Source: Butyrivibrio sp.
GTDB lineage: Bacteria > Bacillota > Clostridia > Lachnospirales > Lachnospiraceae
DNA: 64,000 nt
NCBI GenBank assembly: GCA_017535785.1
Contig: JAFXTN010000008.1
Span: 1 to 64,000, forward strand
Reading direction: 5' to 3'
The notes beneath the pieces were generated by a model, which ran no database searches, had not been told where the DNA came from, and saw only the letters and a list, made by a program, of their open reading frames with translations. Position numbers and translations under genes: made by a program. Below are positions 19,007 through 50,249 of this stretch, piece after piece (positions within the stretch are counted from its first letter, which is position 1; every line of letters begins with the position of its first letter).

Positions 19007-19024
19007 AGTTAGCAAAAGCTAACT
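19007..19024 (+). promoter_or_regulatory. Iron-box-like palindrome upstream of the methyltransferase gene
   Basis: AGTTAGCAAAAGCTAACT is a perfect 18-bp palindrome, one of six GTTAGC-N4-GCTAAC copies in the window. It lies 50 bp before the methyltransferase start. The others precede flavodoxin, DUF3793, enolase and a flavin-linked membrane operon. A DtxR/IdeR-like iron regulator is inferred as its binder because the TTAG...CTAA half-sites resemble that family. Confidence 0.7.
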
Positions 19025-19074: not shown

Positions 19075-19905
19075 ATGTACCATATAGAAAAAAATACAGT
19101 GCAGGAAACACTGATAATACCATTGATCGGAAGAAAAGTGTGTTCCGAACATTTCCCTGAGCTATTTAAAGATCCCGAGGCTGAGCGCATATGCTCAATG
19201 ATCGATTACGATTTTGAAGAAAAGTGCAAGAAGATGGAGACCAAGACAGGACTTCACGGAGCGCTTGAAGTTGCGCAGAGACAATATGGTCTTGCATGGG
19301 AGGTAAAAGATTATTTGAGAAAACATCCAAGTGCAGCGGTAGTCAATCTCGGATGCGGTCTTGATGATACATTTCGAAGATGTGATAACGGAACCTGCAA
19401 AGGCTACAACATCGACATGCCGGATGTGATAGAGATAAGAAATGAACTTTTGCCGCCTGCCGAAAGAGAGCAGAATATGGTTGCAGACCTCAATGACGAA
19501 GCATGGATGGATAAGATAGATGCTTCGGACGGCGCGATATTTTTTGCAGCGGGAGTTTTTTACTATTTTAAAAATGAAGCCATAAAGACGCTACTTTGTA
19601 AGATGGCGAAGAAATTCCCGGGAGGCGTAGTCGTTTTTGACAGCTGTAATAAGCGAGGCGTGCGAATGATGTCTAAGACCTGGCTTGAGGAAGCAGACAT
19701 GGGAGAAGTGAACGTTTATTTCTCTGTGGAAGATAAATCCGAAATCGAAGCGTGGAGCGACGACTTCGAATCTGTGACCGCGCGAAGCTATATGAGAGGC
19801 TATCGAGATATTTTCAAAGATATGAATCTACTTCATAAATTTCTTATCATGTTCTGCGACATTGCAGTAAAGATGAAGATCATGAGAGTTGAGTTTAAGA
19901 AGTAA
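19075..19905 (+). CDS. SAM-dependent methyltransferase, leucine-carboxyl-methyltransferase-like
   Basis: A 276-residue class I methyltransferase of the LCMT/polyketide O-methyltransferase type. The SAM motif VVNLGCGLDDTF is at about residues 90-101, followed by the acidic-loop YNIDMPDVIE and GAIFFAAGVFYYF. Small-molecule O-methylation is likely; the substrate is unknown. AAGGAG sets the start at 19075. It is followed after 14 bp by a heavy-metal-associated domain protein, and an iron-box-like palindrome precedes the pair. Confidence 0.8.
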   Translation: MYHIEKNTVQETLIIPLIGRKVCSEHFPELFKDPEAERICSMIDYDFEEKCKKMETKTGLHGALEVAQRQYGLAWEVKDYLRKHPSAAVVNLGCGLDDTFRRCDNGTCKGYNIDMPDVIEIRNELLPPAEREQNMVADLNDEAWMDKIDASDGAIFFAAGVFYYFKNEAIKTLLCKMAKKFPGGVVVFDSCNKRGVRMMSKTWLEEADMGEVNVYFSVEDKSEIEAWSDDFESVTARSYMRGYRDIFKDMNLLHKFLIMFCDIAVKMKIMRVEFKK

Positions 19906-34788: not shown

Positions 34789-34804
34789 GTTAGACTACTC
34801 TAAC
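34789..34804 (+). promoter_or_regulatory. Iron-box-like palindrome, distal copy
   Basis: GTTAGACTACTCTAAC is a perfect dyad (GTTAGA / TCTAAC). It differs from the consensus at one symmetric pair (A for C). Its start is 21 bp (two helical turns) from the next box at 34810, so two dimers would bind on one DNA face. Confidence 0.55.
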
Positions 34805-34809
34805 AAACG

Positions 34810-34825
34810 GTTAGCAATAACTAAC
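34810..34825 (+). promoter_or_regulatory. Iron-box-like palindrome, proximal copy
   Basis: GTTAGCAATAACTAAC, one mismatch from the GTTAGC-N4-GCTAAC consensus, 31 bp before the lipoprotein gene at 34857. Confidence 0.65.
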
Positions 34826-34856
34826 AAAGCAAACCCGTTTAGAGAGGAGTCATAAT

Positions 34857-36239
34857 ATGAAAAGCAAAGTTATATCAGTAACATGCGCTGCCATTCTGGC
34901 ATTTTCACTTATAGGATGCGGAAGTAAGGAGGAAGATCCTTCAGCCCAAGTAGCAGCTACCGAGACTGAGACCACTGAGGCAACAGCCGAAGAAACCGTA
35001 GAAGTAAAAGGAACCTTCGTAAAAATGAACATTCCTTACGGAGAATTTTTCGCTGCCGAGTTTGAGGGCGGAGACGGAGTAGACGCAGTTTCAAGTGCAA
35101 CTATGAACAAGGCCTCAAACGAGAAGCTCACAGGCGGAACTTATCATCTTGAAGACAACAGCAAGATCTTGGGTGTAAGTTTCCCTGTCTGTGTCCCCGA
35201 AGGAACAACACTCGATGAAAGCTTAAAAGAAGACGATGAAGAAGCTTTATATTCGGCACCGGATCATTCATATGTCGCAATTACAGAAGCTCCTGCCAAT
35301 TACAAGGAACTCACTGTTGACGATTCCGGAAAATATTCATTCGGAAAGACAGTCGGAGATGCAGAGGATTTTGATTCAAGCAACGCAAGCATCAATACCG
35401 CTACATTCTGGGGAGATTATGAGATAGATCTCGATGAGTCTCTTTCAGAGCAGGTTGTATTTGCCGCAAGCATCCATACAACAGACGGAAAGACCTACGC
35501 TATGCGTTCTCTTGAAAACGTTTGGAGAGGCTTTGAGATCGCATTTGCGACAACGGATAAATATGAAGAGCCTCACGGGAATATCGTTGCATATCAGCCT
35601 TACGAAGATCTTCCCGGAAAGACTGTCGACGAGATCGTTCTTTATACAAAAGATGGTGTAAAAAAAGCTGCTGTAAATCTTTACCTTCCTTTGAAATTTG
35701 AGAACGAGATAAAGGTAGAGGACGCCACACAAAAAAGCGGGACTACAACCGTTAAGCTTGACGGATTCCCTGAGGATTATGATCTTGAGTATGAAGTGGA
35801 AGGCGACAGCAAAGACATTGTATGTGACGGTACAAACATCACATGGAAGGATGCTATTGCAGGAAAATACACACTTAAGGTAAGCGATAAATCGGGAGTA
35901 TACGCTCCTTACACAAGTGAGTTCGTTCTTTCTACAGATAAGGCCGTAGCGGAAGCTTCCGAAGATGGTGTAAAAAAAGCTGACGATGCAACAGATGATG
36001 AGTTCGCTGCATACATCAAAAATATTGAAAAATACGATGTTAACGGAACGGAAGTATCAGGAGCTGGTCACCACGGAGCCAAGATCGTCAAAGAAGACGG
36101 AACGGTTGATAAGACACTTTCGAAGGTTTTCGACAAAGAAGGAAGCTACAAAGTTGTTGTAAAGTCGGCTGGATATCCCGATGTGACGCTTAATGTGGAG
36201 ATCACAGAGGTGGCTCCTTCCGAAGAAGGAAAGAAATAA
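34857..36239 (+). CDS. Secreted lipoprotein (Tp47-like) with a possible FMN-attachment motif
   Basis: A 460-residue lipoprotein; lipobox LIGC with Cys near residue 21. After an acidic linker the sequence KMNIPYGEFFAAE and GVDAVSSATMNK recalls lachnospiral proteins annotated as penicillin-binding Tp47-domain proteins. DAVSSAT resembles the ApbE flavinylation motif Dxx(S/T)GAT except Ser for Gly. C-terminal part: Ig-like beta domains. It precedes a membrane reductase with a true DTVSGAT motif and follows two iron-box-like sites, so extracellular electron transfer to iron is my inference. Confidence 0.65.
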   Translation: MKSKVISVTCAAILAFSLIGCGSKEEDPSAQVAATETETTEATAEETVEVKGTFVKMNIPYGEFFAAEFEGGDGVDAVSSATMNKASNEKLTGGTYHLEDNSKILGVSFPVCVPEGTTLDESLKEDDEEALYSAPDHSYVAITEAPANYKELTVDDSGKYSFGKTVGDAEDFDSSNASINTATFWGDYEIDLDESLSEQVVFAASIHTTDGKTYAMRSLENVWRGFEIAFATTDKYEEPHGNIVAYQPYEDLPGKTVDEIVLYTKDGVKKAAVNLYLPLKFENEIKVEDATQKSGTTTVKLDGFPEDYDLEYEVEGDSKDIVCDGTNITWKDAIAGKYTLKVSDKSGVYAPYTSEFVLSTDKAVAEASEDGVKKADDATDDEFAAYIKNIEKYDVNGTEVSGAGHHGAKIVKEDGTVDKTLSKVFDKEGSYKVVVKSAGYPDVTLNVEITEVAPSEEGKK

Positions 36240-36272
36240 TATTCATTTCACAAAGAAAGGAACAGTACCGCC

Positions 36273-37364
36273 ATGGTGTTTTTCTTATCTCTTTTAACGG
36301 CTGTATTGTTTGTCCTTTTGTTTGAGAAACCCCTTAAAAAGAATCCCATACCGTTTTATGTGATTTCAGCGATACTGTCCCTTGCAACGATCATTATCCA
36401 GATGCAGGGGATAGTTTTCGGCGGGGTTATGGGTAAATACATATTTCCTATGTTCAGTAAAGCGGGGCTTGGAACCGCATTTTTTGTTCTGGTCATGTAC
36501 GCCGCAACATTTAAGAACGGCTCCGAACCCATAAAGCTTCTCATGCCCATAAGAGGACAACTGTCAATAATAGCTTCTATTTTGGTATTGGGTCATGTTT
36601 TTTCTATTTCAGGAATATTTTCTCCGGAAAAGACGCTTTTATACATCCTGTCAGTCACAATGTTTATCATCATGATCCCATTGTTCATAACTTCTTTTAA
36701 CCTGATCAGAAAAAAGATGAATGCAAAGGTATGGAAGAACTTGCAACGCTTTGCCTATATCTTTTATCTGTTTATTTATTTTCATATTTTGCTTTTATAT
36801 GTCCGCGGAGCCATCAGGGGAGATTTGAGATCAACATTAAATATATTTGTTTATTCGATTATTTTTCTGTGGTATTTTATAAGTAGACCTTTGAAAGCAT
36901 ACAGTGTCAAGCATAAGGATTTTGATCTCAACAGATACAGATATATATCACTTATCTTGGTCGTATTTGTATCGCTTGGGATATACGGATACATGCTTGG
37001 TGCCGCTGACCATGCAAGGGACGAAAGCACAAAGAGTGTTGCCGAAACAATCTCTTTTGCCGAATCGGAGGATGCAAGTAAAGAGCCGGCACCTGTTGTC
37101 GAGGATGGGATTTACAGCTCAACCTGCTTTGGATATGCAGGAGACATAACTGTTGAGATAAAGGTTGAGAATGGCGAGGTTGTCGATATTTCTCTTCCCG
37201 ATTATGGAGATGAGGAAGATTACAAGCACTTTTCCGAGGATGTCATAGAGGAACTTAAGAAAGATCCGCTGGCCGACGCAGACACCGTAAGCGGAGCAAC
37301 ATTTTCAACACAGGCTGTGATAGACGCATATAACGATGCACTTAAAAAAGCGGGGCTTAAGTAA
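36273..37364 (+). CDS. Ferric-reductase-like transmembrane protein with FMN-binding domain
   Basis: A 363-residue protein: about seven membrane helices (residues 1-255), two of which hold His in LGHVFSIS and FIYFHILLLYVRG as in haem-bearing ferric-reductase-like domains, and an external FMN_bind domain at about 275-363 (DGIYSSTCFGYAGDITVEIKV). DTVSGAT near residue 340 is the exact ApbE target pattern, with Thr the expected FMN attachment site. It should pass electrons from the membrane to an outside acceptor, plausibly Fe(III). No apbE is in the window. Confidence 0.75.
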   Translation: MVFFLSLLTAVLFVLLFEKPLKKNPIPFYVISAILSLATIIIQMQGIVFGGVMGKYIFPMFSKAGLGTAFFVLVMYAATFKNGSEPIKLLMPIRGQLSIIASILVLGHVFSISGIFSPEKTLLYILSVTMFIIMIPLFITSFNLIRKKMNAKVWKNLQRFAYIFYLFIYFHILLLYVRGAIRGDLRSTLNIFVYSIIFLWYFISRPLKAYSVKHKDFDLNRYRYISLILVVFVSLGIYGYMLGAADHARDESTKSVAETISFAESEDASKEPAPVVEDGIYSSTCFGYAGDITVEIKVENGEVVDISLPDYGDEEDYKHFSEDVIEELKKDPLADADTVSGATFSTQAVIDAYNDALKKAGLK

Positions 37365-37422: not shown

Positions 37423-37451
37423 TTGACACGCCCAAAGCGGAATAATAGAAT
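37423..37451 (+). promoter_or_regulatory. Sigma-A promoter of the enolase gene
   Basis: TTGACA (37423-37428), 17 bp, TAGAAT (37446-37451). The iron-box-like site starts 8 bp after the -10, covering the transcription start. Confidence 0.75.
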
Positions 37452-37453
37452 AG

Positions 37454-38812
<1,359 letters not shown>

Positions 38813-38855: not shown

Positions 38856-38892
38856 GTCTCATGGTGGCAGATGATACTGACTACCATGAGAC
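38856..38892 (+). terminator. Intercistronic hairpin between enolase and ECF genes
   Basis: GTCTCATGGT (38856-38865) and ACCATGAGAC (38883-38892), perfect 10 bp with a 17-bp loop, followed only by TATTTACG. It is a weak terminator or an RNA-processing hairpin, so part of the enolase transcript may read into the transporter operon. Confidence 0.5.
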
Positions 38893-38930: not shown

Positions 38931-39506
38931 ATGAAATTAAAAACTAAAGATATGATCTATGCAGGAGCTTTTGCGGCACTTTATGTTGTTGCCGTTTTGA
39001 TAATCATGATGTTGGTTGGAACAATACCGATCATATATATCGCATGTCCGCTTATACTCGGTGTTTTCTTAGGCGCAATCTATCTTTTGAGTGTTCTGAA
39101 AGTAAGAAAATTCGGAGCAGCTCTTTTGATGGCTGTATTGTTTGCTTGTATAGCAACAGGCTTTGATCCGATCGCGTTTTCCGTTTGCATCGTAAGTGCG
39201 CTGGCTGCTGAGCTTTGCATGGCTCTCGGAAAATATCAGTCAAAGAAAATGTATGTTATATCTTATGTGTTTTTCAACTTTATAACAGCAGCAAACTTCT
39301 TCAAAATCCTCATTGCCAAGGATGCCTATATAGCAGGCGTCAGAGCAATGGTCGGTGATGATTTTGCTGACGGAATGAGCAAGCTTGTCACACCTTGGTG
39401 GGCTTGGATCATGATCATCGGATTTGCGATCGTGGGAGGAATCCTCGGCGGACTTCTCGGATCCAAGATCGTGAAAAAGCACTTTGAAAAAGCAGGGATC
39501 GTCTAA
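38931..39506 (+). CDS. MptD family ECF transporter S-component
   Basis: A 191-residue membrane protein with five to six helices, N-terminal KLKTKDMIYAGAFAALYVVA, and KSKIVKKHFEKAG-like C terminus. MptD proteins are substrate-capture units of group ECF transporters; members have been linked to haem or metal-chelate uptake in lactic acid bacteria and streptococci. It heads operon A: S, T, fused ATPase/exporter, exporter. A paralogue ends operon B at 48806. Confidence 0.85.
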   Translation: MKLKTKDMIYAGAFAALYVVAVLIIMMLVGTIPIIYIACPLILGVFLGAIYLLSVLKVRKFGAALLMAVLFACIATGFDPIAFSVCIVSALAAELCMALGKYQSKKMYVISYVFFNFITAANFFKILIAKDAYIAGVRAMVGDDFADGMSKLVTPWWAWIMIIGFAIVGGILGGLLGSKIVKKHFEKAGIV

Positions 39507-39517
39507 GGGGATAAGCG

Positions 39518-40234
39518 ATGTTTACCGGCAATGATAATTCGATAATAAAAGCAGATCCAAGAACAAAACTTTTGTTACTCATTATTTCCATGATCATTCC
39601 GCTTAAGTGCGTGACGATTTTTCCGTCTCTTGTTTATGCGGCCCTTCTTTGCGTGATGCTGTTTTTGGAAGGTGAAAAGTATTTATCTGTAATAAGCTTT
39701 GTTGCTGCAATGATAATAATGTGCTTATATGCCGGCGCGGCTAAGGGCGGCTTTGGCTCGCTCCTAAATATGATATGCATGTCGGTCATGCTCCTTATCA
39801 GATTCTTTTGCCCGATCACCATGGCTCTTATGCTGTTTACAAAGACAACCGACATGTCGCATCTTATTTCTTCTTTTCAAAAGATGCATCTTCCGATGGT
39901 TTTTGTCATTCCATTCGTGGTCCTTATAAGGTTTATCCCGACCATATTTGACGAGTGGGACGGGATAAAGAAAGCCATGCTCTTTAGAGGGATTGAATTT
40001 AAGCTAAAGAGTTTTCTTACCAAGCCCATTCAGATAATCGAGTACACCATGGTTCCGCTTCTTTTTTGTTCGGTTGAACTTATGGATGAACTTGCATCGT
40101 CGGCAATGGCAAGAGGACTCGACAGTGACAGACAAAGAAGCTCGTACGTTGAAGCGAGGCTCGGGGCCTACGATTTTCTTGTGATCCTGGTATTTGTCGG
40201 CTTTCTGGCGTACATGCTTTTTATTTACCAATGA
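39518..40234 (+). CDS. ECF transporter T-component (CbiQ/EcfT family)
   Basis: A 238-residue membrane protein. IIKADPRTKLLLLIISMI is the conserved N terminus, LIRFIPTIFDEWDGIKKAMLFRG contains the first coupling helix, and SSAMARGLDS holds the ARG coupling motif that docks onto the ATPases. Starts 11 bp after the S-component gene. Confidence 0.88.
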   Translation: MFTGNDNSIIKADPRTKLLLLIISMIIPLKCVTIFPSLVYAALLCVMLFLEGEKYLSVISFVAAMIIMCLYAGAAKGGFGSLLNMICMSVMLLIRFFCPITMALMLFTKTTDMSHLISSFQKMHLPMVFVIPFVVLIRFIPTIFDEWDGIKKAMLFRGIEFKLKSFLTKPIQIIEYTMVPLLFCSVELMDELASSAMARGLDSDRQRSSYVEARLGAYDFLVILVFVGFLAYMLFIYQ

Positions 40235-40244
40235 AGAGGTTGAA

Positions 40245-43200
40245 ATGATAAAGATAGAAGATGTTTCATTCAATTATACCGGTGACAAAACGGGCAGCAA
40301 TGGAATAAAAAATATAAATCTTACGATAAACAAAGGCGAATTCGTGGTTCTTTGCGGAAAGAGCGGATGCGGAAAGACAACTCTGACACGAGTGATCAAT
40401 GGCTTGATACCTCACTTTTATGAAGGAGAGATGGAAGGATCCGTATACATCGATGATGCAAATATTACAAAGCAGTCTCTTTCCGATATCTCCACACTTG
40501 TGGGTTCGGTTTTTCAAAATCCGAAAAGCCAGTTTTTCCATGTAGACACGACCGGAGAGCTTTTATTTGGATGTGAGAATCACAACATGTCAAAAGAGCT
40601 GATGGAGGAGAGGCTTAACGAAACAGCAGATGTTCTTCAGATAAGACCTTTACTTAACAGGAATATCTTTGAACTGTCGGGAGGAGAAAAACAGCAGATA
40701 GCGTGCGGATCCGTATACGCTTCCGATCCCGAGATATTTGTTATGGATGAACCCACGTCAAACCTTGACAGAAAGGCGATCAACAGACTTCATCACATAT
40801 TGGAGAAGCTTAAAAGCGACGGGAAAACTATCGTGATCTCAGAGCATCGCTTGTATTTCCTTATAGATCTGGCTGACAGATTTATCTATGTAAAAGATGG
40901 GGAGATAGCGGGTGAATATACGGCGGAGGAATTCAGAGAGTTTCCAAATGAAAAGCTTTTTGAGATGGGGCTCAGAACAACAGATCTTTCCACTGTTAAG
41001 GGGCATCCTTTGGAAGGAAAGCCTTCGAAACCTGTTGTAACGATGAGCGATCTTTCGTGTCAGCGAAACAATTCCACGATCCTTGATGTTGATGACTTAA
41101 AGCTTCCAAAGAATAGCGTTGTTGCTTTCATCGGGGATAACGGAACGGGGAAGAGCACATTGGCGGAAGCGCTCTGCGGCGTACTTGGATCGATGGGAAC
41201 CGTGAGCATAGATGACACGATCATGGATGACAAGCAAAGAGCCAAAGCATGTTTCATGGTAATGCAGGATGTAAACAGACAGCTCTTTTGTGAATCGGTT
41301 CTCGATGAGCTGAAACTGAACAGTGATGTAAGTGATGAACAGGAACTGACTGTCCTTGAAAGACTGGGAATAGATGGGCTTAAGGATAGGCATCCGTCAT
41401 CACTCTCCGGAGGGCAAAAACAGAGAGTTGCGATCGCATCTGCAATCTGCTCCGGTAAAAAGATCATTTTTTATGATGAACCTACAAGCGGACTCGACTA
41501 TGAAGGGATGGAGAATTTTTCCAAGATCATAAGAAACACAGAGTCCGAGGTGGAAGCATCGATAATAATAACTCATGACCTTGAACTTATATTAAACTGC
41601 TGCACTCACGTTGTGCATATGGAAAAGGGAAGACTCGTATCCGTATATCCGTTGGATGAAGCAGGTATTGATAAAGTCAGATATTACTTCACGACTGAAA
41701 GTGAAGAGGCACATACGACTAAAAGAGGATCCGGCTCAGCGATGAACAGGATCATAGAAAGAATGGGCGCGTACAAGAAGCATTTTTATGCGGCCATAAT
41801 CTGCATGATACTTGGAGTTGCGGCAAGTATATTTCCTTATGCGATGCTTTATAAGATAACAGGGAAGGTCCTTTCGGAAGATGTTTTCTCTATAAGGGAT
41901 GTATTTCTTCCGATACTCGGAATATTTTTTGGAAATATATTTTACGGTCTTTTTTATACTAAGGGACTTTCACTTTCGCATATAGCTGCTTTTAACACCC
42001 TTCAGGCGATAAGGATAAAGTTAAAGGATAAGCTGAACAAGCAGCCCATTGGGACAATAAGACAGATCGGTACGGGTGCTCTAAAAAAGATTTTCACAGA
42101 TGATATCGAAGACATAGAGGTCATCCTGGCACATGCGATCCCCGAAGGGATATCCAATCTTCTGGTGTCGCTCGGAATTCTTGTTTTTATGTTCAGTATA
42201 AATTTCCAGCTTGCACTTGTTGCATTCTGTGCTGTTCCGCTGGGGCTTCTTTGCATGAAGCGGATGTATGACGACGGCGTTGAGAGAATGGGTGGTTATT
42301 TTGCTGCCGCGAAGAGAATGAATAACGCGATCGTAGAGTACATAAACGGAATGGAAGTTGTGAAGGTATTTAATTACCAGAGTGAGTCGTACAAGAGTTA
42401 TGAAGCAAGCGTGGTCAACTATAAGAACCTTAGCTTGTCGTGGTATAGGGCGTGCTGGCCTTGGATCGCTCTTTATATGAGCCTTCTTCCCAACATGCTG
42501 TTGTTTGCTCTTCCGGTAGGAACTGTTCTTATAATGTCCGGCGTCGTGGCGATCAATGATTTCATACTTATTATCTGCATGTCGCTTGCAATAGGACCTC
42601 ATCTGCTCAGGGCACTTTCCTTTGCATCTTATGTGACTCAGATAAATTATAAGATACAGGCCCTTGAAAGAGTTCTGGACAGAGCAGAGCTGCGTGAAGG
42701 AACAGAGTCTTTTACAGGCGATGAGCAGCTTGATGTTGAATTTAAAAATGTTCATTTTTCATATAATGACAACGAAGTTCTGAAGGACGTAAGCTTTGTA
42801 GCGAAAGCGGGAGAAATGACTGCGGTTGTCGGAGAGTCGGGAAGCGGTAAGTCTACAATAGCAAGGCTTCTTGCGCATCAGTATGATACCGACGGAGGAA
42901 GCATAACTGTCGGAGGGAAAAAGATCACAGATCTGAGCCTGTCCGAGCTAAATTCAAAGATTTCTTTCGTGTCGCAGGAGATATTTCTTTTTAACAGAAG
43001 CATCATGGAGAACATCAGGATCGGAAATCCGGGTGCCACAGATAAGATGGTGCTTGAAGCGGCAAGGAAAGCGGCTTGCGATGAGTTTATAGAGAAGCTG
43101 CCTTTAGGCTATCAGACTAAAGCAGGAGATGCCGGAAAGAAATTATCAGGTGGGGAGAGACAGAGAATAGCGCTTGCAAGGGCTATTTTAAAGGATGCGC

Positions 43201-43499
43201 CGATCGTGATCCTGGATGAAGCAACATCGTCCATAGATCTCGAGAACGAAGATAAGATCAACAAGGCTATAGATGAGATCATAAAAGGGAAAACAGTTAT
43301 TGTCATTGCGCATAAATTGAGTGCCATGAGAAACGCAGATAAATTCGTACTTATCCAAAACGGTAAAGTAGTAGGCGAAGGAAATAAGACTGAGATCATG
43401 AAGGACGCATACTTTAAGCAGCTTTACAAGCTGTCTAAAAATGCTGAAGAATGGATGGTCAATAACTTCGGGGACATCAAGGAGGATAAGGCTATATGA
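40245..43499 (+). CDS. Fusion of paired ECF ATPases with an ABC-exporter-type half transporter
   Basis: A 1084-residue protein with three ATPase domains. Residues 1-475 are an EcfA-like tandem: Walker A GKSGCGKTT (38-46) and GDNGTGKST (297-305), each with LSGGEKQQ or LSGGQKQR signature. From residue 500 (MNRIIERMGAYKKHFY) comes a complete type IV (MsbA-like) half transporter with six helices and an ATPase (GESGSGKST near 863, LSGGERQRIALARAILKDAPIVILDEATSSID). The join lies exactly where a free half transporter would start, and AGAGGA precedes ATG 41742 there, so separate translation is possible. ATG 40245 follows GAAGAGG. The partner half is the next gene. Confidence 0.9.
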   Translation: MIKIEDVSFNYTGDKTGSNGIKNINLTINKGEFVVLCGKSGCGKTTLTRVINGLIPHFYEGEMEGSVYIDDANITKQSLSDISTLVGSVFQNPKSQFFHVDTTGELLFGCENHNMSKELMEERLNETADVLQIRPLLNRNIFELSGGEKQQIACGSVYASDPEIFVMDEPTSNLDRKAINRLHHILEKLKSDGKTIVISEHRLYFLIDLADRFIYVKDGEIAGEYTAEEFREFPNEKLFEMGLRTTDLSTVKGHPLEGKPSKPVVTMSDLSCQRNNSTILDVDDLKLPKNSVVAFIGDNGTGKSTLAEALCGVLGSMGTVSIDDTIMDDKQRAKACFMVMQDVNRQLFCESVLDELKLNSDVSDEQELTVLERLGIDGLKDRHPSSLSGGQKQRVAIASAICSGKKIIFYDEPTSGLDYEGMENFSKIIRNTESEVEASIIITHDLELILNCCTHVVHMEKGRLVSVYPLDEAGIDKVRYYFTTESEEAHTTKRGSGSAMNRIIERMGAYKKHFYAAIICMILGVAASIFPYAMLYKITGKVLSEDVFSIRDVFLPILGIFFGNIFYGLFYTKGLSLSHIAAFNTLQAIRIKLKDKLNKQPIGTIRQIGTGALKKIFTDDIEDIEVILAHAIPEGISNLLVSLGILVFMFSINFQLALVAFCAVPLGLLCMKRMYDDGVERMGGYFAAAKRMNNAIVEYINGMEVVKVFNYQSESYKSYEASVVNYKNLSLSWYRACWPWIALYMSLLPNMLLFALPVGTVLIMSGVVAINDFILIICMSLAIGPHLLRALSFASYVTQINYKIQALERVLDRAELREGTESFTGDEQLDVEFKNVHFSYNDNEVLKDVSFVAKAGEMTAVVGESGSGKSTIARLLAHQYDTDGGSITVGGKKITDLSLSELNSKISFVSQEIFLFNRSIMENIRIGNPGATDKMVLEAARKAACDEFIEKLPLGYQTKAGDAGKKLSGGERQRIALARAILKDAPIVILDEATSSIDLENEDKINKAIDEIIKGKTVIVIAHKLSAMRNADKFVLIQNGKVVGEGNKTEIMKDAYFKQLYKLSKNAEEWMVNNFGDIKEDKAI

Positions 43500-45151
43500 T
43501 AAAGCAGATAAGAAGGATCATACATCTTTCAGGTAAATATAAGACGAGCTTAAGACTCTCATATTTCTTTTCCCTCCTTCGTTCGTTGTGCACATACAGC
43601 CCATATATGCTGAGTGTTTACATAATCAAGCTTTTGTATGAAAAAGAGATGACATCAGGAAAAGTGGGCATTATGATAGCTGTTATTGCGGCTCTGTTTG
43701 TGGGACAGGTGTTGTTTTCATATCTGTCTGACAGACTACAGTCGACGGCCGGATATAAGCTCTTTTCAGATCTTAGGATCAAGCTCGGAGAAAAACTCCG
43801 TCACATGCCTATGGGCTTTTTTACTGATGGAAATATAGGAAAGATAAGCACGGTTCTTGCAGTCGATATGGGATTTATCGAATCGAATTGCATGAATACG
43901 ATATCTTCCTTTGTCGGAGATCTATGTTCCGAGATCCTTATCATCGGATTCATGACTTTTTTGCATCCGTTGCTTGGAGCGCTTACGCTTGTAGTTGCGA
44001 TCATGATAGTGATCGCGGGAAACTTTGCCATGAAACATGAACAGGGAGAAGCGGACGGGAAACAGGCGCTGAATGAGGAGCTTTCAAGTCATGTCCTTGA
44101 ATATATCGAAGGAATGGGTGTTATAAAGTCCTACAACATGGTCGAGAGCGAATCTACCGACATAGAAAAAGCATTTGAGAAGATGAAAAAAGAGTGTATC
44201 GCTTTCGAAAGAAAAGTAACGCCTAACCTAAGGATCCTGGAGTTTGTGAATCTTTTGGGAGTCGTTCTTGTCATTTCTTTGTGCATAGGACTTTACGGTG
44301 CCGGTGAGCTGGAAAGATTCAGGACTCTTGCGGTATGTATTTTTTCATTTGGTGTTTTCAAACCGATCAAGGAAGTATATCTGCAGGTTACGAGGTTTGC
44401 TGTTATGAACAGCAGTCTTGATCGTATCGAAGAATTGTTTGAGCTTGAAGTTTTGGATGAAAAAGATATATCGACTATCCCGGACAGAGCGCCCGTGGGA
44501 ACTCCTGAGATTGAATTTAAAGATGTATCTTTTGCCTATGAAAAAGAGAGTGTACTTGAAAACGTATCGTTCAAGGTTGAAAAGAACACCATGGCTGCGC
44601 TTGTCGGACCTTCCGGAGGCGGAAAGAGTACAGTTGCGAGCCTGCTTACCAGATTTTGGGATGTTGAAAGCGGAAAGATAATGATCAGAGGCGTCGATAT
44701 AAGGGACGTTCCGATGGAAAATCTAATGGACAATATAAGCGTGGTATTTCAGAAGGTATATCTTTTCAAGGATTCAATATACAACAATATCAGGATGGGA
44801 AGGCCGGATGCTACTCGTGAAGAGATCATAGAGTGTGCAAGGAAGGCAAGATGCATGGAATTCATCGATAAGCTTCCGTACGGGATCGATACGGTCATAG
44901 GCGAAGGCGGTGCGAGTTTATCGGGGGGAGAAGCTCAGAGGGTCTCCATTGCGAGGTGTATTTTAAAAGATTCTCCTATAGTAATTTTGGATGAAGCTAC
45001 AGCAAGTATTGATGCAGATAACGAGGCGTATATTCAGGAGGCGCTGGATGAGCTTTGCCTTGGAAAGACGCTTTTGGTCATTGCGCATAGACTAAATACA
45101 ATAAAAAATGCCGATGTCGTGTATAAAGTGATGAACAAGACAGTGGCATAA
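43496..45151 (+). CDS. ABC-exporter-type half transporter (IrtB/YbtQ-like)
   Basis: A 551-residue half transporter: six helices at about 20-300 and an ATPase with GPSGGGKST (near 370), QKVYLFKDSI Q-loop, LSGGEAQRVSIARCILKDSPIVILDEATASID. ATGA overlap with the fusion gene implies a heterodimer with its C-terminal half. Such pairs with exporter fold but import role (IrtAB, YbtPQ) take up siderophores, which fits the iron context; export is the alternative. Confidence 0.88.
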   Translation: MIKQIRRIIHLSGKYKTSLRLSYFFSLLRSLCTYSPYMLSVYIIKLLYEKEMTSGKVGIMIAVIAALFVGQVLFSYLSDRLQSTAGYKLFSDLRIKLGEKLRHMPMGFFTDGNIGKISTVLAVDMGFIESNCMNTISSFVGDLCSEILIIGFMTFLHPLLGALTLVVAIMIVIAGNFAMKHEQGEADGKQALNEELSSHVLEYIEGMGVIKSYNMVESESTDIEKAFEKMKKECIAFERKVTPNLRILEFVNLLGVVLVISLCIGLYGAGELERFRTLAVCIFSFGVFKPIKEVYLQVTRFAVMNSSLDRIEELFELEVLDEKDISTIPDRAPVGTPEIEFKDVSFAYEKESVLENVSFKVEKNTMAALVGPSGGGKSTVASLLTRFWDVESGKIMIRGVDIRDVPMENLMDNISVVFQKVYLFKDSIYNNIRMGRPDATREEIIECARKARCMEFIDKLPYGIDTVIGEGGASLSGGEAQRVSIARCILKDSPIVILDEATASIDADNEAYIQEALDELCLGKTLLVIAHRLNTIKNADVVYKVMNKTVA

Positions 45152-45738: not shown

Positions 45739-45754
45739 GTTAGCAAATGCTAAC
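45739..45754 (-). promoter_or_regulatory. Iron-box-like palindrome in the flavodoxin promoter
   Basis: GTTAGCAAATGCTAAC, identical to the enolase site including the centre. It falls in the spacer/-10 of the predicted flavodoxin promoter. Confidence 0.75.
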
Positions 45755-45775
45755 ATAATAATCAATACAGATAGC

Positions 45776-45790
45776 TGATAATTATTATCA
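45776..45790. promoter_or_regulatory. Perfect 7-1-7 Fur box
   Basis: TGATAATTATTATCA exactly fits the Bacillus-type Fur consensus TGATAATnATTATCA. It lies between divergent flavodoxin and DUF3793 genes, 22 bp and 60 bp from the two GTTAGC boxes, and could control both. Confidence 0.8.
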
Positions 45791-45849
45791 TAAATGACTG
45801 TAGATCAAAGCAAAGCCCGATGAGATTCGGGTATTTCTTTTGCAAACGC

Positions 45850-45865
45850 GTTAGCCATAGCTAAC
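45850..45865 (+). promoter_or_regulatory. Iron-box-like palindrome before DUF3793
   Basis: GTTAGCCATAGCTAAC, perfect arms, ends directly before AGGAGG and 14 bp before the ATG, so it is in the leader of operon B. A bound protein would block elongation or ribosome access at the DNA or RNA level. Confidence 0.72.
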
Positions 45866-45878
45866 AGGAGGAAACAAA

Positions 45879-46430
45879 ATGGGAGACCAAGTACTTATAG
45901 AGTTATGCTCTCCGACTTTGGCGGGGCTCAAGACGGGCAATCTTTTTACTGTTGATTGTGATGATATAGGAAAGTTCAATCACGAAGTCAGAGGATTTAA
46001 TGCCAGGCTCGCAGACAAAGGGCTTCGCATGATACCGGTCAAATATTGGAACGGGCGCGTGCTCATTTATCTTTACAGACCCTCTTTTTTAAAAAGAGAT
46101 TTTTCAGACAAAGAGGTTTGCAAAGTTCTCAAGGAAAAAGGCTATTCGTACAGCAATGCAGATCTTTGTGTGGCAGAGCTTTCCAAGCATCTTAGGAAAG
46201 ATTCTAAATTTCCGCATGAGATAGGTCTTTTTCTCGGATATCCGGTAAAAGATGTTGTGGGATTTATGAAGGATTCCAGAAAAGGCGTGCAGTACACAGG
46301 CTTTTGGAAGGTTTATGGAGATAAGGACTCTGCGCTTGCAACGTTTGACAGGTACAAAAAGGTAACGGAAATTTACAGCATGGCACATGAAAACGGTGCT
46401 TCATTGGAGCAACTTACAGTTGCCGGGTGA
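45879..46430 (+). CDS. DUF3793 family protein
   Basis: A 183-residue soluble protein of DUF3793, identified by LIELCSPTLAGLKTGNLF at the N terminus, GRVLIYLYRPS, FPHEIGLFLGYPVKDVVGF and WKVYGD with the trailing FDRYKKV. The family is typical of Clostridia and frequently sits with iron genes or flavodoxin; its activity is unknown. First gene of operon B (DUF3793, Fur-like, T, ATPases, S). Confidence 0.9.
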   Translation: MGDQVLIELCSPTLAGLKTGNLFTVDCDDIGKFNHEVRGFNARLADKGLRMIPVKYWNGRVLIYLYRPSFLKRDFSDKEVCKVLKEKGYSYSNADLCVAELSKHLRKDSKFPHEIGLFLGYPVKDVVGFMKDSRKGVQYTGFWKVYGDKDSALATFDRYKKVTEIYSMAHENGASLEQLTVAG

Positions 46431-46440
46431 AAGGGGCAGT

Positions 46441-46674
46441 ATGAGTAAAAAACAGATAATAGGCGTTTTAAGGGAACAAGGATTCAGAGTTACCAAACAG
46501 AGAGAAATAATGGCAGATGTGATCGCGGAAAACGACGGTGCGTCCTGTAAGGATATCTGCTGCATAGTAAAGTCCAAGGACAGATCGATCGGGACGGCTA
46601 CAGTTTACCGTATGATCAAGACTTTGGAGGATCTGGGGATCATAGAGAGGATCGATATGATCAAGCTGCATTAG
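46441..46674 (+). CDS. Short Fur-like winged-helix protein without dimerisation domain
   Basis: A 77-residue protein containing only the DNA-binding half of Fur: VLREQGFRVTKQREIMADVI and SIGTATVYRMIKTLEDLGIIERID. Full Fur proteins have about 140-150 residues; the whole metal-binding and dimerisation half is absent. It ends in a clean TAG with no in-frame continuation. ATG 46441 has AAAGGGG upstream, 10 bp after DUF3793. Either a natural short family or a truncation; retained position in an iron operon suggests a role. Confidence 0.8.
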   Translation: MSKKQIIGVLREQGFRVTKQREIMADVIAENDGASCKDICCIVKSKDRSIGTATVYRMIKTLEDLGIIERIDMIKLH

Positions 46675-46713: not shown

Positions 46714-47391
46714 ATGAAAGCAATTAATATCAACCCTATCGTTCTCATTATAGTGAACATAATCGCTCCGTCGATGTACATGTTCTTAAGCGGAAAATTC
46801 ATCCAGGTATTCCTGCTGGTATTTGCAGCGGCACTCATGGCCTTGATGGGGAGGTTCAAGAGGCTTGCGATATATCTTTTGATATACGGCGCTATTATGG
46901 GAATATATTACGTGACAATGCAGATAAAGAGTATAGAAGCCACCGGTCTTTTTCTGATCGTGTTGGTTCAGTGCGTTCCGTGTATTGCACTGGCTTCAAT
47001 ACTCGTAAGTAAATATAATTCCGCGCAGCTTCTGTCTGCGCTTGAAACACTTCATGTTCCGAGAGTGCTTGTAGTGGCCGTCACGATCACACTCAAATAT
47101 ATCCCTACATTCAGAAGAGAGTTTTCTTATATTACAGAATCGATGAGACTTAGAGGAATCGGATTCACCTGGAAGAGACCGGTGAAGAGCTTCCAATATT
47201 TTATTGTGCCTCAGCTGTTCAGATGCGCTGCGCTTGCGGAAGAAGTCACTGCGGCGGGACTTGTAAAAGGGATCGATGCGCCCATGAACAGGTCGTCATA
47301 TTTTGAAGAAAAATTCACCTTCGCGGACGTAGCGGTTCTTGTTGTGTTTGCGGCAGGACTCGTGGGAGGTATCGTATGGAAGCATATGTGA
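46714..47391 (+). CDS. ECF transporter T-component, operon B
   Basis: A 225-residue membrane protein: five or six helices, LKYIPTFRREFSYITESMRLRGIGF coupling segment and AAGLVKGID at the position of the second ARG-type motif. A minimal ORF (ATG AAA AAA TGA at 46706) precedes and overlaps its ATG 46714, whose spacing from GAGGAAAG is long; a one-base change in the A6 run would extend the N terminus by MKK. Confidence 0.85.
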   Translation: MKAININPIVLIIVNIIAPSMYMFLSGKFIQVFLLVFAAALMALMGRFKRLAIYLLIYGAIMGIYYVTMQIKSIEATGLFLIVLVQCVPCIALASILVSKYNSAQLLSALETLHVPRVLVVAVTITLKYIPTFRREFSYITESMRLRGIGFTWKRPVKSFQYFIVPQLFRCAALAEEVTAAGLVKGIDAPMNRSSYFEEKFTFADVAVLVVFAAGLVGGIVWKHM

Positions 47392-48809
47392 AAAAAGAAA
47401 ATGTGATAAAAGCGGACAACCTTAGCTTTAACTACGAGGAATCGGAGGAAGGCATAAGTGATGTCAATTTTGATATAAGCGAGGGGGAGATAGTTCTTCT
47501 TACGGGAAACAGCGGAAGCGGAAAGTCAACGCTTTTAAAGTGCTTGAACGGCCTGATCCCGGCAGTTACCGAAGGGGATATGAAAGGTCTTTTGTCGATC
47601 GAAGGTGAGAACTATTCGGAGCTTAAGATGTACCGTCTGAACCAGATGATCGGATCGGTATTTCAGAATCCGCGCTCGCAGTTTTTTACGGACAATACGA
47701 CAGCGGAGCTTGTCTTTCCGATGGAGAATTACGGTTTTTCCAAAGAAGAAATGAAGGAGAGACTTGAGAGCCTTTGTAAGACATTCGGTATCAGCGAGCT
47801 TATGGACAGAAATATCTTTTCTTTATCAAGCGGAGAGCGTCAGCTTATTGCGCTTGCATCCGCAGTAACGATGAAGCAGAGGGTTCTTTTGTTCGATGAA
47901 CCGAGCGCAAACCTTGATTACGGCAACGCAATGAGGCTCGGACGGTTATTGAAAAAGCTTCGTGATAAGGGATACACCATCATTGTCGCCGATCACAGAT
48001 TCTATTACCTGGGAGGGGAGATCGACAAGGTTCTCTTTATGGAAGACGGAAAGCTGAAGCTCTGTAACAGCGAGGAAGAATTCAAGCAAGGCAACTACAA
48101 TACGCGAAGCTTTGACATCTTCTCGATAGACATCCCATTTCCCGAAAAGAGACAAGCAAGCGAAGTTGTCGCAAGCCTTGAGGATGTGCGCTACAAGGAT
48201 ATTTTAAACGGAGTGGATCTCAAGCTTAATAAAGGTGAGATCACGGTCCTAGTCGGAAACAACGGAGCGGGGAAGACCACTTTGGCTAAGGCGCTGTGCA
48301 TGAGCATCAAGCCCGACAGCGGTAAAGTCGATGTCTCGGGACTTCCTTTCTTTATCATGCAGGATCCCGATTATCAGCTATTCGGAACTTCTGTTAAAAA
48401 TGAGCTTGAGCTGGTAAAAAAAGATCCCGCGGCGATAGATCATTGTCTTAAATATTTGGGACTATCCAAATACAAATACAAGCATCCCTTTGACCTCAGC
48501 GGAGGCCAGAAGCAGAGACTTCAGATAGGTATGGCGATGCTCTGCGACAGAGAGCTTATAATCTTCGACGAACCCACAAGCGGACTTGATGTCTACTCGA
48601 TGTTAAATGTCTCGAAGGAGATAAACAGACTAAGGGAAAAGGCGGGCGTTCTTGTGATCTCGCATGACTATGAGTTCATAAGACATGTCGCGAATAGGGT
48701 AGTGTACCTAAAGGACGGCGTGATCAAAAAAGATTTTATTTTGGATGAGCAGAGCTTATCTGATTTAAATAACATTTTTAAAGAAATGCAGGAGGATAAA
48801 GACGTATGA
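47376..48809 (+). CDS. Tandem ECF ATPase (EcfA-like pair in one chain), operon B
   Basis: A 477-residue protein with two ATPase domains: Walker A GNSGSGKST (about 44-52) and GNNGAGKTT (near 297), signatures LSSGERQ (variant) and LSGGQKQRLQIGMAML, Walker B LLFDEPSANLD and IIFDEPTSGLD. Equivalent to the N-terminal half of the fusion protein in operon A. Overlaps the T gene by 16 bp and the S gene by 4 bp. Confidence 0.9.
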   Translation: MEAYVKKENVIKADNLSFNYEESEEGISDVNFDISEGEIVLLTGNSGSGKSTLLKCLNGLIPAVTEGDMKGLLSIEGENYSELKMYRLNQMIGSVFQNPRSQFFTDNTTAELVFPMENYGFSKEEMKERLESLCKTFGISELMDRNIFSLSSGERQLIALASAVTMKQRVLLFDEPSANLDYGNAMRLGRLLKKLRDKGYTIIVADHRFYYLGGEIDKVLFMEDGKLKLCNSEEEFKQGNYNTRSFDIFSIDIPFPEKRQASEVVASLEDVRYKDILNGVDLKLNKGEITVLVGNNGAGKTTLAKALCMSIKPDSGKVDVSGLPFFIMQDPDYQLFGTSVKNELELVKKDPAAIDHCLKYLGLSKYKYKHPFDLSGGQKQRLQIGMAMLCDRELIIFDEPTSGLDVYSMLNVSKEINRLREKAGVLVISHDYEFIRHVANRVVYLKDGVIKKDFILDEQSLSDLNNIFKEMQEDKDV

Positions 48810-49405
48810 AAATGTTAAAGATCAAAGATGTAGTAATGGTGGCGCTTTTAACGGCGCTTTACTTTGTCGCTTACATGGTGGGAAGCGGAGTAAGCATGGT
48901 GTTCGGACCTTTCGGACATGCGATCAGTCCCGGACTTTGCGGATTCTTTACGGGGGTAGTTTTTTATTTCGTCAGCAGAAAGATTGGTAAGTTTTTACAG
49001 TTTTCACTTATGCAGGCAATTGTAATGATACTTTTCAGCATCATGGGAGCAGGATATCTACCGTGGATCATAACTTCTATGATCTGTGCGATCATTGCGG
49101 ATCTTATCGCATCAAGAGAAAGTAAGCCCGCTGTATGGAAGGTCGCTGTAGCATCAGGTGTGTTCCATGTAGGACAGGCACTTGGAGCGATCATTCCTTC
49201 AATTTTCTTTATGGAGAGCTACAAGGCTGATTGGGTATCAAGAGGACAGACACCTGAGCATATGGACGAGATGATCGCTGCTACAACAGGAGCAATGGGC
49301 GTTATAGCAACTGTGATCGTATTTGCGCTTGCTTTTGCGGGAATCTATTTAGGACACCTCATTCTCAGAAAGCACTTTGAGAAAAAGGAAGCTCAGGCAG
49401 CATGA
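48806..49405 (+). CDS. MptD family ECF S-component, operon B
   Basis: A 199-residue membrane protein with five or six helices, MLKIKDVVMVALLTALYFVAY N-terminal helix, and LGHLILRKHFEKKEAQ C terminus. Paralogue of the protein at 38931. ATGA overlap with the ATPase gene. Substrate probably iron, haem or a chelate, inferred from the regulatory context only. Confidence 0.85.
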   Translation: MKMLKIKDVVMVALLTALYFVAYMVGSGVSMVFGPFGHAISPGLCGFFTGVVFYFVSRKIGKFLQFSLMQAIVMILFSIMGAGYLPWIITSMICAIIADLIASRESKPAVWKVAVASGVFHVGQALGAIIPSIFFMESYKADWVSRGQTPEHMDEMIAATTGAMGVIATVIVFALAFAGIYLGHLILRKHFEKKEAQAA

Positions 49406-49481: not shown

Positions 49482-50249
49482 ATGTGGCAGATTATTTTAA
49501 TACCGTTCTTGGGAACGACGCTGGGTGCAGCGACAGTATTTCTGTTCAGAAAATCGATTGGTGAAAAGATGCAGAAAGCATTCACCGGATTTGCGTCAGG
49601 TGTGATGGTTGCGGCTTCTTTTTTCAGCCTTATACTCCCTGCGCTTGAACAGACGCAGGATATGGGAAGGCTGGGTTTTATCCCGGCATGTATAGGCTTT
49701 GGAATAGGTATGTTGTTCCTGCTTGTGCTTGACGTGATCACACCGCATATGCATTTGGATAAAATGGAAGAAGGCCCCAAAAGTGGCCTTAAGAGGACTA
49801 CCAAACTGGTCCTTGCCGTTACACTTCACAATATACCCGAAGGAATGGCGGTTGGAATAGTATGCGCCGGCTGGATGAGCGGAAATGCCGCAATAACATT
49901 TACCGGTGCACTTGCACTTGCGATAGGTATCGCGATCCAGAACTTCCCTGAGGGAGCGATTGTTTCAATGCCGCTTCTCGGAGAGGGCGTTCCGAAGAGT
50001 AAAACATTTTTATACGGCATGCTTTCCGGTATAGTGGAGCCTATCGGAGCACTGCTTATCATCGCAGCTTCGAGACTTCTCATACCCACGATGCCGTATC
50101 TTTTGAGCTTTGCCGCAGGAGCAATGATCTACGTTGTTGTCGAAGAGCTTATTCCGGAGATGTCGGAAGGAAAACATTCCAACATCGGAACAGTCTGCTT
50201 CGCCGCAGGATTCATTGTTATGATGGCACTTGATGTCGGACTTGGGTAA
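49482..50249 (+). CDS. ZIP family metal transporter
   Basis: A 255-residue divalent-metal transporter with eight membrane helices. The metal-binding helices are HNIPEGMAVGI (about residues 115-125) and NFPEGAIVSMPL (about 149-160), with the E-E-L-I-P-E segment near the C terminus. The GufA-like branch, which takes up zinc, iron or manganese. GAGGGG before ATG 49482; 76 bp after operon B. Confidence 0.9.
   Translation: MWQIILIPFLGTTLGAATVFLFRKSIGEKMQKAFTGFASGVMVAASFFSLILPALEQTQDMGRLGFIPACIGFGIGMLFLLVLDVITPHMHLDKMEEGPKSGLKRTTKLVLAVTLHNIPEGMAVGIVCAGWMSGNAAITFTGALALAIGIAIQNFPEGAIVSMPLLGEGVPKSKTFLYGMLSGIVEPIGALLIIAASRLLIPTMPYLLSFAAGAMIYVVVEELIPEMSEGKHSNIGTVCFAAGFIVMMALDVGLG

What the first reader, a model, noticed from the sequence alone, without database searches (positions are those of the whole stretch)
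40245..43499. One polypeptide with three ATPase domains joins an ECF energiser to an ABC-exporter-type half transporter
Residues 1-475 are paired EcfA-like ATPases and residues 500-1084 a full half transporter. The next gene gives the other half. This physically links ECF import and a siderophore-type transporter, and suggests a joint machine in which both act on one substrate, for example uptake followed by release. I know of ECF and exporter genes being neighbours but not of this fusion as a described system.
Basis: partly seen in the sequence, partly recalled or inferred. Interest (0 to 1): 0.8.

Follow-up and report, generated by a model that had tools for sequence, protein, structure and literature searches.

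The report
Fused ECF and siderophore-type transporter protein
A gut-type bacterium makes one long protein that joins the ATP motor of a vitamin-type uptake system to half of a siderophore-type transporter; the fusion is real, has arisen more than once, and appears tied to iron-chelate uptake, although nobody has yet shown that the two halves work together.

Summary
40245-43499 is one open frame of 1084 aa: paired ECF ATPases (1 to ~482), a short linker, then a complete ABC half transporter (500-1084). Gene order: S (Trep_Strep/MptD), T, fusion, second half transporter. It is not a sequencing error: I hold 14 fused loci from Bacillota, Spirochaetota and Actinomycetota; 11 form one clade with no indel across linker and elbow. 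Trees of both parts reject a single origin; three or four separate fusions of neighbouring genes are needed. The fused half's membrane domain matches the siderophore importers YbtP and IrtA better than any solved exporter, also in the three fused loci outside the main clade; the partner half does not. A rare palindrome (13 in the genome, 6 in this window) precedes feoA-feoA-feoB, flavodoxin and the enolase gene just upstream of this operon, so iron regulation is likely. A same-genus relative has the fusion 17 kb from a thiazoline NRPS/PKS cluster; the window's own genome shows no NRPS condensation domain. Unfused operons of this kind are in print (eqb, mpt); I found no description of the fusion. 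Best reading: metallophore uptake with two importers tethered 1:1. Joint mechanism, substrate and direction are untested.

The parts
37423..37474 (+). sigma-70-like promoter (TTGACA-17-TAGAAT, 11/12) with palindrome GTTAGCAAATGCTAAC (37459-37474) just downstream, in front of enolase
   Evidence: promoter-like matches in that region are no more frequent than in shuffles; operator role inferred
37487..38812 (+). enolase (first possible ATG given), immediately upstream of the transporter operon; co-transcription inferred
   Evidence: frame; Pfam of the L066 counterpart; palindrome before enolase also in L066 and L067
38856..38892 (+). stem-loop GTCTCATGGT/ACCATGAGAC between enolase and the S gene; arms kept in two same-genus loci with one G-U pair; role unknown
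38931..39506 (+). ECF S component, Trep_Strep/MptD family; C-terminal KKHFEKAG
39518..40234 (+). EcfT (CbiQ family) with FRG and ARG motifs
40245..43499 (+). the fusion: EcfA + EcfA' + IrtA/YbtP-like half transporter, 1084 aa
41691..41741 (+). linker between EcfA' and the half transporter (residues 483-499); no gap among the main-clade relatives
43496..45151 (+). partner half transporter (551 aa), Walker A/B and signature intact; TMD nearer to exporters than to YbtQ by sequence
45739..45865 (.). two palindromes (45739, 45850) and a perfect Fur box (45776-45790) between the divergent flavodoxin and DUF3793 genes

Best explanation
The operon 38931-45151 is an iron-regulated uptake system for a metal chelate (a siderophore-type metallophore, most likely foreign). 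S+T+EcfAA' form an ECF importer; the second half of the fusion and the 43496 protein form a heterodimeric exporter-fold importer that works like IrtAB/YbtPQ. Joining EcfAA' to the N-terminus of the IrtA-like half ties the two transporters 1:1 in the membrane so that both act in one uptake pathway. Shown by computation: the single frame, its conservation, fixed linker, repeated origin, family identities, and the position of the palindrome. Inferred: iron as signal, metallophore as substrate, import for both, assembly of all four proteins. Unknown: whether substrate passes from one transporter to the other.
For: Fused frame in 14 loci, four of them named records from three phyla. Eleven rows form a clade in both trees (EcfAA' 97/99; half transporter 87, not starred); holding all fused rows as one clade is rejected (p-AU 3.7e-199 and 4.8e-5). 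No gap over residues 466-545 (80 columns, 9 rows) against 33% gaps in the A-A' spacer. TMD-only PDB search: YbtP 2e-18 and IrtA 1e-17 to 8e-11, all before the first exporter (3e-10); IrtA/YbtP also lead for L042, L043, L041; one control half transporter, L008, shows no IrtA/YbtP in the 60 listed of 208. Of 80 loci drawn by the TMD alone, 28 hold a Trep_Strep S frame and 20 have S or T in one gene chain with an ABC half; 43 such S genes in 100 family genomes predict well under one. Palindrome GTTAG-N6-CTAAC: 13 sites in 2.9 Mb (reversed-pattern control 1), 6 in this window, among them before feoA-feoA-feoB (elsewhere in the genome), flavodoxin/DUF3793 and enolase. Same-genus G332 holds the fusion and, 17 kb on, a thiazolinyl imide reductase with NRPS/PKS; in G203 (fusion on another contig) B-B-S-T-A directly precedes NRPS genes with an aryl-AMP-ligase-like protein.
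Against: The partner half's TMD is closer to exporters (TM_0288 3e-9) than to IrtA (8e-4), YbtP (0.002) or YbtQ (0.009). In S. equi, eqbKL deletion did not block uptake and lowered secreted activity twofold, so the ABC pair may export. The window's operon has no palindrome within 250 b of the S start; the nearest lies before enolase, with a strong hairpin between; L040, L104, L068, L111 and L215 show no full palindrome at all in the stretch held. The protein that reads the palindrome is not identified; TetR genes lie near five fused loci. mptABC of M. avium subsp. paratuberculosis is zinc-regulated. Most ABC pairs of this type in the set have no ECF gene in their chain (103 B-B chains), so the partnership is optional. 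No structure could be predicted.
Confidence: 0.5

Rival explanations
1. Import plus release: the ECF part brings in the loaded chelate and the exporter-fold pair sends the empty chelator (or a toxic product) out again, a recycling unit. (The rivals are not mutually exclusive.)
For: S. equi: eqbHIJ needed for import, eqbKL deletion lowers secreted activity twofold (PMC3672683 passages). Partner half nearer to exporters.
Against: Fused half nearer to IrtA/YbtP in the window and in the three fused loci outside the main clade. No NRPS condensation or IucA/IucC domain in this genome (genome 90.8% complete).
Confidence: 0.2
2. Mere co-expression: the fusion is a stop-codon loss between adjacent genes of one pathway and has no mechanical meaning.
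For: The unfused genes are neighbours with small gaps or overlaps, so fusion is easy; fused members are few (7 of 397 family genomes).
Against: No indel in the linker region among main-clade members of three phyla and purifying selection through it; fusion reached three or four times.
Confidence: 0.2
3. The system is for another metal or cofactor (zinc, heme, cobalt) and not for an iron chelate.
For: mptABC answers to zinc; an Enterococcus relative lies beside metal-ABC and rpsN/rpmF/rpmG genes (their zinc link is recalled); LhaSTA is an ECF heme importer; a Shr-like Hb-interacting domain gene at 34857 and a ZIP gene at 49482 lie in the window.
Against: Palindrome shared with feoA-feoA-feoB and flavodoxin, perfect Fur box nearby, thiazolinyl imide reductase and NRPS in same-genus G332. 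The Enterococcus S, T and AA are closer to the window's second ECF set than to this one.
Confidence: 0.2

Closest known systems
Equibactin locus eqbHIJ + eqbKL, Streptococcus equi (PMC3672683, passages)
   Same: A three-gene importer beside a pair of permease-ATPase half transporters related to YbtPQ (28-30% by the paper), in a siderophore locus with a DtxR-like regulator.
   Different: K and L are separate proteins; no fusion in the passages. I could not compare sequences; that HIJ is of ECF kind I take from the annotation of a C. difficile relative and a remark on S. lugdunensis.
mptABCDEF, Mycobacterium avium subsp. paratuberculosis (PMC4298942, PMC4132290, passages)
   Same: IrtAB-like mptABC next to mptDEF; the S family is called 'MptD family' in NCBIfam, presumably after this mptD (inferred).
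   Different: mptABC is zinc/FurB-regulated; no fusion in the passages; 'ECF' had no hit in either text. Sequences not compared here.
YbtPQ and IrtAB siderophore importers
   Same: Best PDB matches of the fused half's TMD. IrtA too carries an extra N-terminal part: matches begin at residues 286-401 of the 859-908 aa chains (that this is a siderophore-interaction domain is recalled).
   Different: Here the N-terminal addition is an ECF ATPase pair; the partner half is not YbtQ/IrtB-like by TMD.
LhaSTA heme ECF transporter, Staphylococcus lugdunensis (PMC7299338, passages)
   Same: Iron-regulated ECF importer for an iron source.
   Different: Three genes, no half-transporter pair or fusion in the passages.
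Unfused S-T-AA-ABC-ABC operon on a Corynebacterium aurimucosum plasmid, L221
   Same: Same five parts in the same order, 28-36% identity to S, T, AA and halves.
   Different: Five genes; AA and first half transporter separate.

Membership tests
ECF transporter | S component of a known S family | tested here: met
   PF09605 151.8 bits (cut-off 28.7) and TIGR02185 109.1 (76.45)
ECF transporter | EcfT with two short x-R-G coupling motifs (motif recalled) | tested here: met
   CbiQ 57.6 bits (cut-off 25); FRG and ARG at 156 and 198
ECF transporter | Two ECF ATPases with intact catalytic motifs | tested here: met
   Walker A/B, signature, Q and H residues invariant in six fused proteins; best PDB hit of 1-482 is EcfA2 4mki, narrowly ahead of two-domain ABCB proteins whose scores sum. 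The 396-bit TIGR04520 score counts three stretches and is inflated
ECF transporter | S:T:A:A' complex and substrate uptake | not testable with these tools
   needs protein
IrtAB/YbtPQ-type importer | Exporter-fold half transporters encoded as a pair | tested here: met
   ABC_membrane + ABC_tran in both
IrtAB/YbtPQ-type importer | Fused half's TMD nearest to IrtA/YbtP | tested here: met
   single control
IrtAB/YbtPQ-type importer | Partner half nearest to IrtB/YbtQ | tested here: not met
   exporters first, YbtQ 0.009; so I do not file the pair as a member, only as probably working like one
IrtAB/YbtPQ-type importer | Inward transport of metal-siderophore | not testable with these tools
   needs assay
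Iron regulon of this genome | Shared operator with feoAB | tested here: inconclusive
   palindrome lies before enolase, one gene upstream; read-through into the S gene not tested; regulator not identified
Equibactin-type siderophore locus | NRPS beside the transporters | tested here: not met
   0 condensation-domain matches in the window's genome; present in same-genus G332

The most novel reading that the evidence does not exclude
A single four-motor machine: the ECF S component is the high-affinity receptor, and the fused ECF and IrtA-type modules pass the captured metal chelate between them, so that an ECF S protein serves an exporter-fold importer that lacks a binding protein.
Probability: 0.2. 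Interest if true: 0.85.

Novelty: new variant of a known kind. Interest (0 to 1): 0.6.

Why it matters
ECF and exporter-fold transporters are studied as separate classes, and the role of the exporter-fold pair beside siderophore-linked operons (eqbKL) is open. A natural tether that arose more than once fixes their ratio and gives a stable object for pull-down or cryo-EM, so the question whether the two act together becomes directly testable. It also points to a siderophore economy in gut-type anaerobes, including a member that keeps the transporter but shows no NRPS.

Tried and rejected
Frameshift or assembly error: rejected. Internal start as conserved design: the ATG at residue 500 has GAGGA before it in the window, no such site before it in L066/L067; at the aligned place L076, L039, L081, L111 and L068 have no ATG, and L104 and L040 have one a residue away without a site. 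A second ATG seven codons on has an AGGA in the window and L066/L067 and none in L076, so internal starts are not excluded in this genus. One single fusion event: rejected by AU tests in both trees. Limits of the trees: one search used 80 of 152 half-transporter rows (72 of 111 stand-alone rows dropped, quick method, long branches flagged); one search used 53 rows (also without L074 and L096), quick method, with the long row L041; in the EcfAA' tree (52 rows, careful, no mixture model) L043 stands next to the main clade beside one unfused row, so that tree forces only 3 changes. Viral contigs: no relative of a 378-aa query. Rfam over 28000-56000: nothing at gathering threshold. Fur box directly before the S gene: only a 3-mismatch match inside the hairpin at 38872 (18 such matches in the window, shuffles 7.9 on average), not used. 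Full-length PDB scores of the halves were hard to read because two-half transporters sum both halves; I used TMD-only searches. No Trep_Strep S match in the PDB by sequence at E up to 1. T. vincentii L111 is counted as fused, but its frame lacks about the first 62 residues and another frame stands before the partner, so it may be decaying; L045 has the ATPase part split over two overlapping frames and is not counted as fused in the locus count or trees, but was counted in one row (told in the report). L076 is a MAG contig, so its phylum rests on correct binning.
Full report
What is there. The frame 40245-43499 codes for 1084 aa without a stop. Residues 1-~482 are two ECF-type ATPases, 500-1084 an ABC half transporter. 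Walker A, signature and Walker B motifs of all three ATPase domains are intact in the window protein, and the Q, catalytic E and H residues are invariant among six fused proteins. The gene follows a Trep_Strep/MptD S gene and a CbiQ-type T gene and overlaps by 4 bases a second half-transporter gene. A second, unfused T-AA-S set lies at 46714-49405.

Is the fusion real and general? In the genus, 4 of 61 genomes (window included) show a frame over 1000 aa with no stop across the junction (the listing was cut, so a lower bound). In the family, 7 of 397 do (only matches at E up to 1e-40 and at most 8 candidates per genome; one row with a stop inside, G164, and the split G198 not counted); in the phylum sample only the window itself, 1 of 398 (E up to 1e-20). 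A scan of named species genomes by the membrane domain kept the best 80 of 453 relatives; four are fused: a Spirochaetales MAG, Curtanaerobium respiraculi (Actinomycetota), a Lachnospiraceae MAG and Treponema vincentii. Beyond L066/L067 the window protein's nearest kin is the spirochaete MAG copy, nearer than the same-genus copy G350, which suggests transfer between phyla if the MAG is binned correctly.

One or many origins? In the half-transporter tree the fused state needs 4 changes, all forced by starred branches; in the EcfAA' tree 4, of which 3 forced. Holding all fused rows together is rejected (p-AU 4.8e-5 and 3.7e-199). Eleven rows make the main clade (97/99 in the EcfAA' tree; 87, not starred, in the reduced half-transporter tree); L041, L042 and L043 lie outside it, L043 close by in the EcfAA' tree. 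Unfused chains in the order S-T-A-B-B (6) and B-B-S-T-A (13) occur in the same set (near-copies included), so fusion joined genes that were already partners. Among the 80 loci chosen by the membrane domain alone, 28 contain a Trep_Strep S frame and 20 have S or T in one chain with an ABC half. The family has 43 such S matches over the cut-off in 100 genomes, about 0.15 per Mb if a genome is near 2.9 Mb, so chance would give well under one in the 1.04 Mb held; the two samples are not the same genomes, so this is an estimate.

Is the single chain under selection? Between the window and a same-genus copy (L066) 1084 codons align; dN/dS is 0.06 over residues 471-512, as low as in the domains (0.04-0.09), though dS is near saturation. 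Among the main clade the stretch 466-545 (tail, linker, elbow, first helix; 9 rows, L066 and L067 left out) has no gap, while the spacer between EcfA and EcfA' has 33% gaps and the C-tail 17% (full-length identity of L039, L040, L076, L081 and L104 to the window is 51-68%). In that script a text search gave the same 63-residue span in 10 of 11 rows; for L081 it stopped at an earlier PY, but its aligned row has no gap. A start codon with a ribosome-binding site in the linker is not conserved outside the genus. So the full-length product with fixed geometry is the conserved thing; protein-level proof is lacking.

Which transporter class? Full-length comparison is blurred by the ATPase domains. 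With the membrane domain alone, the fused half finds YbtP (2e-18) and IrtA (1e-17 to 8e-11) before any exporter (TM_0288 3e-10; MsbA 4e-4 or worse). The three fused loci outside the main clade rank IrtA/YbtP first as well: L042, L043, L041. The one control, another half transporter of the same genome, ranks exporters, with no IrtA or YbtP among the 60 shown of 208 matches. The partner half behaves differently: exporters first, IrtA 8e-4, YbtP 0.002, YbtQ 0.009. IrtA in the PDB also has about 285-400 residues before the matched part, so an N-terminal addition to this half has a precedent; that it is a siderophore-interaction domain is recalled.

What is it for? Upstream of these operons I found a palindrome GTTAGY-N4-RCTAAC. 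The core TTAG-N6-CTAA lies within 250 b of the first gene in 6 of 12 fused S-led chains (this row includes the split L045 and omits L215, whose upstream is too short; 5 of 11 without L045), 17 of 26 unfused S-led, 9 of 16 ABC-led with ECF and 82 of 121 ABC-led chains without ECF, against 0.0034 per 250 b in the ECF/ABC coding sequence and 0.046 in all sequence (near-copies included). In L043, counted as lacking it, the site overlaps the first codons of the frame and lies upstream of a later, more likely start. In the window's genome the full palindrome occurs 13 times (reversed pattern once), 6 of them in this window. Sites lie before feoA-feoA-feoB, a MATE gene, an ABC/FtsX pair, two methyltransferase-like genes, two other ABC pairs of this kind (C38, C39), a Shr-like gene (two sites), flavodoxin/DUF3793 (two sites, with a perfect Fur box at 45776) and enolase; one, on C16, lies between a protein without a family and an exonuclease gene. 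A search with the DtxR-type domain PF02742 finds one protein in this genome. That the palindrome is a DtxR/IdeR-type box is recalled resemblance, and TetR genes near five of the fused loci are an alternative reader. The fusion operon itself has no site within 250 b; its nearest lies before enolase, next to a promoter-like pair, and L066 and L067 also have a site before enolase. Co-transcription is inferred.

In same-genus G332 the region after the fusion holds an ABC pair, two S-T-AA sets and then, 17 kb on, a thiazolinyl imide reductase (259.7 bits, cut-off 188.8) with NRPS/PKS modules. In G203, B-B-S-T-A (not the fused operon, which is on another contig) directly precedes NRPS genes with an aryl-AMP-ligase-like protein (450 bits, below its curated cut-off of 723.55). 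Of 10 genomes with the fusion, 4 have condensation domains over the cut-off; the window's has none, and none of the 10 has IucA/IucC (the four named records' genomes were not searched). So thiazoline siderophores are likely substrates of the family, and this organism would use foreign ones, if its 90.8% complete genome is representative.

Against what is known. S. equi eqbHIJ is needed for equibactin-dependent iron import, while eqbKL deletion leaves uptake and lowers secreted activity twofold (PMC3672683, passages). M. avium subsp. paratuberculosis mptABC is IrtAB-like and zinc-regulated, next to mptDEF (PMC4298942 and PMC4132290, passages). C. difficile and S. lugdunensis have ECF genes in equibactin-like clusters (PMC6814731, PMC12709192, passages). 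Corynebacterium and Enterococcus plasmid records hold unfused relatives. None of the passages I saw describes the fusion, and no title or abstract start listed by the ten searches points to it. Supplementary files, most subscription papers and preprints are not covered.

Verdict. A real, conserved fusion, evolved three or four times, of an ECF ATPase pair with an IrtA/YbtP-like half transporter, in an operon that is probably iron-regulated and for metallophore uptake. It is a new variant of a known operon type. Whether the tether makes one machine is open and testable.

Noticed in passing
46714-49405: Second ECF set (T, AA, S) of the same S family without half transporters; its AA is 43% identical to that of an Enterococcus operon beside metal-ABC and rpsN/rpmF/rpmG genes, and a ZIP gene follows at 49482. 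It may be a zinc counterpart.
   Followed up: partly
38856-38892: Stem-loop between enolase and the S gene, arms kept with one G-U pair in L066 and L067; no Rfam match. Possibly an attenuator or operator.
   Followed up: partly
34789-37364: Two palindromes before a gene with a Shr-like Hb-interacting domain, followed by an FMN-binding membrane protein: perhaps a heme or ferric-reduction unit.
   Followed up: no
46387-46674: A 95-aa FUR-family protein that matches only positions 1-64 of the 121-position Pfam model.
   Followed up: no
19008-19023: A further palindrome before a leucine-carboxyl-methyltransferase-like gene at 19075; a site on contig C24 also precedes a methyltransferase gene.
   Followed up: partly
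38931-39506 and 22 other S genes: C-terminal K-H-F-x-[KR]-[AS]-[GDN] tail in the Trep_Strep S family: K, H, F invariant in the 23 aligned; L041's S gene deviates.
   Followed up: no
L111 5681-11804: Treponema vincentii copy: fused frame lacks about the first 62 residues and a 367-aa frame stands between it and the partner; may be decaying.
   Followed up: no
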